A stretch of 44,383 nt of DNA from Mariprofundus sp. (GTDB taxonomy: Bacteria > Pseudomonadota > Zetaproteobacteria > Mariprofundales > Mariprofundaceae), in contig JAUZQJ010000043.1 of NCBI GenBank assembly GCA_030951045.1, positions 1-44,383 of the forward strand. The letters are read 5' to 3'. Position 1 is the first letter of the stretch. Each line of letters opens with the position of its first letter. Shown here piece by piece: positions 31,532 through 32,845 of this stretch. The notes beneath the pieces are model-generated. The model did not search any database and had not been told where the DNA came from. It saw only the letters and a program-made list of their open reading frames with translations. The translations under genes were made by a program, and so were the position numbers.

Positions 31532-32845
31532 ATGAGTACAGGTAACATTATTCAAGTGATCGGTCCGGTAGTGGACATTCGTTTCAATGCAGGTGAGTTG
31601 CCAGGCATCTACAATGCATTGAAAATGACTGATCCAAAGTTGACGCTCGAAGTTCAACAGCATGTTGGTAATAACACAGTGCGTGCTATTGCAATGGGTA
31701 GTACTGACGGCTTAATTCGCGGCATGTCAGTGACTGATACCGGCGCGCCTATCCAGGTTCCTGTTGGTGAAGCTACGCTTGGCCGAATCATGAACGTATT
31801 GGGCGAAGGCATCGATTTTGAAGGCGAAGAGGTTGCTTCTGAAACCCGTTGGTCTATTCATCGTACAGCGCCAAGCTTTGATGAATTATCTCCAGCTTCT
31901 GATATTCTGGAAACAGGCATCAAGGTGATCGACCTGATCGCTCCAATCGCTAAGGGTGGTAAAGTAGGCCTATTCGGCGGTGCTGGTGTTGGTGAACGTA
32001 CACGTGAAGGCAACGATTTCTATTATGAAATGAAAGAGTCTAACGTACTTGATAAAGTTGCACTTGTTTATGGTCAGATGAATGAACCTCCAGGTAACCG
32101 TCTGCGTGTTGCATTGACCGGTTTGACTATGGCTGAGTATTTCCGTGATGAAGGCCGTGACGTTCTGATCTTCATTGATAACATCTACCGTTACTCTCTA
32201 GCTGGTGTTGAAGTATCTGCACTGTTGGGTCGTATGCCATCTGCTGTGGGTTATCAGCCTAACCTGGCTGAAGAAATGGGTCGCTTGCAGGAGCGTATTG
32301 CTTCTACGAAGACTGGTTCAATCACATCTGTACAGGCTGTTTACGTACCTGCGGATGACTTGACCGATCCGGCTCCTGCAACCACGTTTGCGCATCTGGA
32401 TTCTACTATTGTATTGAGCCGTCAGATTGCTGAGCTAGGTATCTACCCTGCGGTTGATCCACTTGACTCTACTTCTCGTCAGCTTGATCCAAAAGTTATT
32501 GGCATCGAACATTACGAAGTTGCACAGGGTGTTCAGCAGACACTACAGCGTTATAAAGAATTGCAGGATATCATTGCAATCCTGGGTATGGATGAGCTTT
32601 CAGATGAAGATAAACTGACTGTACAACGTGCACGTAAGATGCAGCGCTTCTTGTCTCAGCCGTTCCATGTTGCTGAAGTATTTACTGGTTCTCCAGGTGT
32701 TTACGCTAAGAAAGAAGAGACCATTAAAGGTTTCAAAGGTCTTTTGGCTGGCGAATATGATCACATGCCTGAACAAGCGTTCTACATGGTTGGTGACATC
32801 TCTGAAGCTGTTGCTAAAGCTGAGAAAATGGCAGCGAAAGGCTAA
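31532..32845 (+). CDS. atpD: ATP synthase F1 subunit beta with Walker A deletion
   Basis: Recognisably the catalytic beta subunit, but 437 aa instead of about 460. The text GLFGGAGVG (ending G154) runs directly into [13 protein letters not shown]. In E. coli, K155 of GGAGVGKT and E181 of AGVGERT are 26 residues apart; here E155 is the equivalent of E181, so exactly 26 codons (78 nt) between the two AGVG motifs are absent, in frame. The lost part includes the catalytic Walker A Lys and Thr and the P-loop helix. The rest is intact ([18 protein letters not shown], arginine and catch-loop regions). As read, the protein should not hydrolyse or make ATP. Confidence 0.95.

What the first reader, a model, noticed from the sequence alone, without database searches (positions are those of the whole stretch)
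31961..32010. ATP synthase beta subunit lacks its Walker A lysine: exact 26-codon in-frame deletion between two AGVG motifs
The gene reads [16 protein letters not shown]. Every normal beta subunit has GGAGVGKT, about 20 residues, then AGVGERT. E155 here stands where K155 should be and equals E181 of E. coli, so 78 nt are absent between two near-identical codings of Ala-Gly-Val-Gly (GCTGGTGTTGGT at 31982-31993). All other atp genes look intact, downstream coupling is preserved, and no second atpD is in the window. Either the cell carries a real repeat-mediated deletion and depends on another ATP synthase or beta gene, or reads collapsed across the repeat.
Basis: partly seen in the sequence, partly recalled or inferred. 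Interest (0 to 1): 0.85.

Follow-up and report, generated by a model that had tools for sequence, protein, structure and literature searches.

The report
Probably misassembled ATP synthase beta gene
A key ATP-making gene in this metagenome-derived genome lacks the 26 codons that hold its ATP-gripping loop, but the gap lies exactly between two short identical repeats and coincides with a jump to differently related DNA, so it is most likely a stitching error in the assembly rather than a bacterium with a broken ATP synthase.

Summary
atpD (31532-32845, 437 aa) lacks 78 nt (26 codons) including the Walker A Lys-Thr. All 29 relative loci fetched (of 60 relatives searched) have GGAGVGKT, 20 residues, AGVGERT. 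In the nearest relative, G010 (95.6% identical over 35.6 kb), the missing stretch lies between two exact 13-nt repeats; the window keeps one copy (31981-31993). No other beta gene was found in the bin, which is 86.9% complete.

The rest of atpD is under normal purifying selection. The contig looks like a k=141 assembly (exact 141-nt end overlap). In relative G014, atpD is split into two contigs over this same stretch. The ~300 nt before the join are 10.4% diverged from G010, against 0.7% before and 1.4% after: a 7.6-fold contrast, at most 2.4-fold in 378 pairs of relatives. The same join was found in one other atpD in a scan of GTDB species genomes: an unrelated metagenome bin, 121 nt from a contig end.

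Against this: 13 nt is shorter than usual assembly k, and the contig has other microhomology-bounded deletions. No reads were available. Artefact about 0.8, real about 0.2.

The parts
31532..32845 (+). atpD, F1Fo ATP synthase subunit beta as assembled, 437 aa, lacking 26 codons
   Evidence: TIGR01039 752.9 bits, cut-off 462.85
31981..31993 (+). the single remaining copy of the 13-nt repeat TGCTGGTGTTGGT; the 78-nt loss is at this point
31681..31978 (+). tract 10.4% diverged from G010, flanked by 0.7% (31532-31680) and 1.4% (31994-32500); it ends at the join
31994..32011 (+). ERTREG of the second AGVGERT motif, joined directly to the P-loop glycines
26851..33255 (+). atp operon: subunit a (26851-27702), c (27753-28007), b (28055-28537), delta (28534-29058), alpha (29090-30631), gamma (30645-31502), beta (31532-32845), epsilon (32845-33255); all but beta look intact
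1..141 (+). exact 141-nt overlap with the end of contig C66 of the same bin: signature of a de Bruijn assembly with final k=141 (the window's other end has no such match)

Best explanation
The cell's atpD is most likely intact, and the 78-nt gap was made when the contig was built from a metagenome holding more than one closely related haplotype. The P-loop stretch of atpD is a tangle in the assembly graph. The path ran about 300 nt into a second haplotype and was joined back to the first at the wrong copy of the 13-nt repeat, skipping one repeat unit plus the 65 nt between the copies (78 nt). The join is in frame only because both copies encode Ala-Gly-Val-Gly in the same frame. Shown: the repeat, the exact loss, the 141-nt end overlap, the haplotype switch, the recurrence. 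Inferred: that the step was an assembler or library join and not a cellular event. The particular step (small-k local assembly, end merging, or a chimeric library molecule) is a guess.
For: Single beta gene found in the bin, yet dN/dS of the two remaining parts against G010 is 0.057 and 0.036, in the range of 15 other genes of the contig (0.012-0.103). Exact 141-nt overlap of the window's start with the end of C66. Relative G014's atpD is broken into two contigs whose ends overlap by exactly 141 nt across both AGVG copies. Divergence from G010 is 1/149 before, 31/297 in the tract ending at the join, 7/507 after (Fisher p 1e-8 for tract against after); the ratio 7.6 compares with median 1.40 and maximum 2.38 among 378 pairs of 28 relatives. 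The same join occurs in one atpD among 46 pattern hits in GTDB r220 contigs: L080, a Comamonadaceae bin, 121 nt from the contig end. It is in 0 of 77 other genomes of the class.
Against: A 13-nt repeat cannot collapse in a de Bruijn graph at k of 21 or more, so a special step is needed that I could not demonstrate. The same contig carries four further serial microhomology-bounded deletions in another operon (7115-7597), which could mean that this lineage really loses DNA this way. Mosaic tracts occur elsewhere without a deletion (around 26930-27450), so the switch at the join may be natural recombination. Part of the drop in divergence after the join is ordinary conservation of the region (against G012 14.8% then 8.5%). 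In L080 the change of nearest relative across its join is weak (91.6% to 85.8% over only 120 nt). The window's far end shows no overlap with another contig of the bin.
Confidence: 0.8

Rival explanations
1. A real deletion by replication slippage (RecA-independent recombination) between the 13-nt repeats, in a strain or subpopulation that lost ATP synthase catalysis and was caught in the bin shortly afterwards, or that uses another ATP-making route.
For: Exact 13-nt direct repeats 78 nt apart are a classical slippage substrate (general knowledge); the same contig has other microhomology-bounded losses; losses of 59 nt or more number 7 in this bin and 2 in G010 over 285 kb aligned, or 10 and 2 if the serial losses are counted singly. 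That count includes this one, the nuoE-nuoF difference that is more likely an insert in G010, and two outside long open frames.
Against: No second beta or alternate ATP synthase found in the bin, no relaxation of the remaining gene, no fetched relative with the loss.
Confidence: 0.12
2. A natural homologous import of a ~300-nt atpD tract from a related strain whose end recombined imprecisely at the repeat, deleting 78 nt in the cell.
For: The diverged tract ends at the deletion; other diverged tracts exist in the contig.
Against: Yields the same presumably dead enzyme; needs two rare events at one spot; nothing found in the bin rescues it.
Confidence: 0.05
3. A functional beta subunit with a new nucleotide-binding solution that does without the Walker A Lys-Thr and the helix after it.
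For: The frame is open and the rest is conserved and under purifying selection.
Against: The segment is kept in 29 of 29 fetched relatives, including one at 95.6% nt identity; little else in the protein has changed that could compensate: 5 and 2 non-synonymous differences from G010 in the two parts.
Confidence: 0.01

Closest known systems
F1Fo ATP synthase subunit beta, AtpD (TIGR01039)
   Same: Sequence, operon place, AGVGERT and the downstream part; 752.9 bits, over the curated cut-off
   Different: Walker A Lys-Thr and the 24 residues after it are missing in the sequence as assembled
Local assembly errors in metagenome-assembled genomes (described in PMC7111523; passages seen)
   Same: Wrong protein-coding sequence from a short mis-joined stretch in an otherwise good contig; repeats and co-existing strains are named there as difficulties
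   Different: The passages suspect IDBA-UD above all and detect errors by missing read support; here reads were not available and the error is inferred from comparison
Short-direct-repeat (slippage) deletion in bacteria (general knowledge)
   Same: Loss of one repeat copy plus the DNA between
   Different: Would here remove catalysis from an apparently single-copy gene with no sign of decay

Membership tests
F1Fo ATP synthase beta subunit (atpD, TIGR01039) | score over the curated cut-off | tested here: met
   752.9 against 462.85 bits, in two stretches
F1Fo ATP synthase beta subunit (atpD, TIGR01039) | place between gamma and epsilon in an atp operon | tested here: met
F1Fo ATP synthase beta subunit (atpD, TIGR01039) | Walker A P-loop GGAGVGKT | tested here: not met
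   reads GGAGVGER; Lys-Thr missing; present in 29 of 29 fetched relatives
F1Fo ATP synthase beta subunit (atpD, TIGR01039) | Glu-Arg of AGVGERT (catalytic role recalled) | tested here: met
alternate F1Fo beta (TIGR03305) | score over the curated cut-off | tested here: not met
   511.1 against 752 bits
metagenome assembly error | consensus not supported by any single read across the join | not testable with these tools
   no reads available
metagenome assembly error | join coincides with a change of haplotype | tested here: met
   natural recombination not excluded
metagenome assembly error | repeat at the join at least as long as the smallest assembly k | tested here: not met
   13 nt, shorter than common smallest k of 21-39 (recalled; 39); a smaller-k step would be needed

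The most novel reading that the evidence does not exclude
A natural subpopulation of an iron-oxidising bacterium that carries a recent repeat-mediated deletion of the beta-subunit P-loop, living without F1 catalysis for a time or on an ATP synthase outside the recovered 87% of the genome.
Probability: 0.1. Interest if true: 0.6.

Novelty: not a real feature. Interest (0 to 1): 0.13.

Why it matters
As a biological claim it probably does not. As a warning it is useful: all 29 fetched relatives encode Ala-Gly-Val-Gly twice in the same frame 26 codons apart, so a wrong join there gives an open reading frame that passes family cut-offs while missing its catalytic loop. Two such entries were found here, in unrelated bins of public genome collections, and could mislead annotation or training data.

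Tried and rejected
Second beta gene elsewhere in the bin: not found; the bin is 86.9% complete, so an unseen copy is not excluded.

The nuoE-nuoF difference at window 15012 (149 nt bounded by a 17-nt repeat) as a second collapse: not used. Of 19 other genus genomes with a match, 14 align straight through like the window and 5 (G009, G010, G012, G016, G019) are split there, so it looks like an insert in those, not a loss here. The names nuoE, nuoF and the other nuo and glm labels in my scripts are recalled, not from a family search.

Losses in the bin at large: only a sample could be compared (60 contig stretches plus the window, 697,603 bases, against 1.23 Mb of G010; 284,713 bases aligned at 88% or more in pieces of 200 nt or more). 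Indels of 15 nt or more: 10 lacking in the bin, 8 lacking in G010; of 59 nt or more 7 and 2, or 10 and 2 when the four serial losses are counted singly. Suggestive, not decisive.

ORF intactness over the sample: 165 of 197 G010 ORFs full in the bin, 170 of 193 the other way. Most 'not full' rows carry a stop in the alignment; I take these as stops in the non-coding 5' part of the stop-to-stop frames and did not check them row by row.

Papers (10 of 10 searches used): searches returned nothing; one search found 35 papers (15 listed), of which I saw passages of PMC7111523 only; one search listed three, titles and abstract starts seen, none about such a mutant; one search listed five, of which I saw passages of PMC11039613 and PMC11283720 (not used further); searches were seen as listings only; one search listed two, both seen in passages (PMC5513912; PMC8250860, not used further). 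That MEGAHIT uses a local assembly with k from 11, and that k=141 points to MEGAHIT, is recalled and was not verified. Phage-collection records with atpD matches (16 records, 60-80% identity) were not followed up. A structure prediction was not run, as it would not separate the rivals.

Full report
What is there. The window is contig C103 of a 2.26-Mb genome in 164 contigs, 86.9% complete and 2.3% contaminated; I take it for a metagenome bin from these figures and from the assembly signature below, as its name is not given. The atp operon runs from 26851 to 33255. atpD (31532-32845) is open, 437 aa long, and overlaps atpC by one base. The seven other subunits each pass the cut-off of at least one NCBIfam model; atpD passes TIGR01039 (752.9 against 462.85 bits), but in two stretches.

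The loss. Of 60 relatives searched, 29 atpD loci were fetched; all 29 carry GGAGVGKT, 20 further residues and AGVGERT, where the window reads GGAGVGERT. Two genomes of the genus gave no usable atpD (G018 none, G008 only a weak match) and one of the family only a C-terminal part (G035). The nearest relative, G010, is 95.6% identical over 35,636 aligned bases of window 8452-44103; its only differences of 20 nt or more there are 20 nt at 11055, 149 nt at 15012 and this 78-nt segment. In G010 the segment lies between two exact copies of TGCTGGTGTTGGT, 78 nt apart. The window keeps one copy, preceded by bases like those before the first copy and followed by those after the second. Because both copies encode Ala-Gly-Val-Gly in one frame, a join there is always in frame, so the open frame is no sign of function.

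Consequences if real. The Walker A Lys-Thr and the following helix region would be gone; residue 155, Glu, aligns both with the P-loop Lys and with the Glu of the second AGVGER of a solved beta subunit. That such a protein cannot hydrolyse or make ATP is established knowledge of F1, not a test made here. No other beta was found in the bin: PF00006 finds atpA, this gene, and two frames read as FliI (C38) and Rho (C150); TIGR03305 is over its cut-off only in G009, 1 of 23 genomes of the genus. dN/dS against G010 is 0.057 for 31532-31980 and 0.036 for 31994-32845, against 0.012-0.103 for 15 other genes of the contig. The gene is not decaying.

Signs of a wrong join. (1) The window's first 141 bases equal the last 141 of the fetched C66 locus, which ends there: the mark of a de Bruijn assembly with final k=141. 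The window's other end has no such match. (2) In relative G014, atpD is split into two contigs whose ends overlap by exactly 141 nt, and that 141-mer covers both AGVG copies: the stretch is a branching point in another assembly too. (3) Divergence from G010 is 1/149 (31532-31680), 31/297 (31681-31978), 7/507 (31994-32500) and 12/342 (32501-32842). The contrast between the tract before and the stretch after the join is 7.6-fold; among 378 pairs of 28 relatives (G014's partial locus left out) the median is 1.40 and the maximum 2.38. The change falls between the mismatches at 31978 and 32050, and the join is at 31981-31993. Over the aligned 35 kb, 1.1% of 300-nt windows are as divergent as this tract. 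The contig therefore changes haplotype at the very place where it loses 78 nt. (4) A scan of the GTDB r220 species genomes (84,980 by the tool's description; contigs under 3,000 bases not held) for the join's codons gave 46 stretches; by translation 1 of 46 is an atpD (L080) and 45 are not; 3 viral stretches are not atpD either. The tool notes that the window's own genome may be left out. L080 is a Comamonadaceae bin, RE-20apr16-135; its atpD fragment stops at the contig end 121 nt after the repeat, and the rest of the gene was not found in that bin. A paper on Rimov Reservoir and other lakes reports MEGAHIT with k 39 to 149 (PMC11039613, passages). That this bin belongs to that sampling is my inference from its name; if so, the join lies within the contig's last 149-mer. 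(5) In the class, 1 of 78 genomes has the join: this one.

Results that pull the other way. The repeat is only 13 nt, below any usual k, so a plain graph collapse is excluded and a smaller-k or end-merging step, or a chimeric library molecule, must be assumed. The contig has another oddity: at 7115-7902 an aspartoacylase-like, RimK and zinc-protease operon that is intact in G010 is reduced to fragments by four serial deletions of 256, 237, 403 and 695 nt, bounded by 9, 13, 5 and 8 nt of microhomology, with the fragments still 93-95% identical; no other RimK was found in the bin. A 5-nt overlap seems too short for an assembler join (inference), so some of these may be real, which leaves room for a lineage that deletes between short repeats. 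In the sample compared, losses of 59 nt or more number 7 here and 2 in G010, or 10 and 2 with the serial ones counted singly. Other diverged tracts without deletion exist in the contig. In L080 the switch of nearest relative is weak.

Organism. Two single-contig genomes of the genus are 2,301,665 and 2,537,610 bases, matching the 2.30 and 2.54 Mbp of Mariprofundus ferrinatatus CP-8 and M. aestuarium CP-5 (PMC5513912, passages). I infer that the window is from Mariprofundus or a near relative. These strains are described as obligate Fe(II)-oxidising chemolithoautotrophs, for which a dead ATP synthase should not be tolerated (inference).

Verdict. Observation right, loss-of-function reading unsupported, join error favoured at about 0.8. 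The exact error step is not shown, and reads would settle it.

Noticed in passing
window 7115-7902: Remnants of an aspartoacylase-like (PF24827), RimK (PF08443) and zinc-protease (PF05618) operon, intact in G010, cut by four serial deletions (256, 237, 403, 695 nt) at microhomologies of 9, 13, 5 and 8 nt while the fragments stay 93-95% identical; either recent real decay or a chain of chimeric joins.
   Followed up: partly
window 7971-8408: IS200-like Y1 transposase gene (PF01797) beside the decayed operon.
   Followed up: no
window 15012: G010 carries 149 extra nt at the nuoE-nuoF junction, with internal 75-nt-spaced repeats and bounded by a 17-nt duplication; 5 of 19 other genus genomes with a match are split there, 14 align straight through like the window.
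   Followed up: partly
window 26930-27450: Most diverged tract against G010 in the aligned 35 kb (up to 46 mismatches in 300 nt, in the subunit a gene), without a deletion.
   Followed up: no
L080 5566-6167 (CANGZG010000053.1): A second atpD with the same join and the P-loop segment missing, in a Comamonadaceae metagenome bin, 121 nt before the contig end.
   Followed up: yes
L256 (G009:C60:28474-29817): One genome of the genus carries an alternate F1Fo beta (TIGR03305, 884.1 bits) beside its ordinary atpD.
   Followed up: no
L238 near 1154 (G000:C123): 712-nt loss against G010 at a 10-nt microhomology, in a stretch where G010 holds a 214-residue stop-to-stop frame.
   Followed up: partly
L171 near 6233 (G000:C17): 269-nt loss against G010 with a 4-nt overlap, inside a 252-residue stop-to-stop frame of G010, 250 nt from the contig end.
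   Followed up: partly
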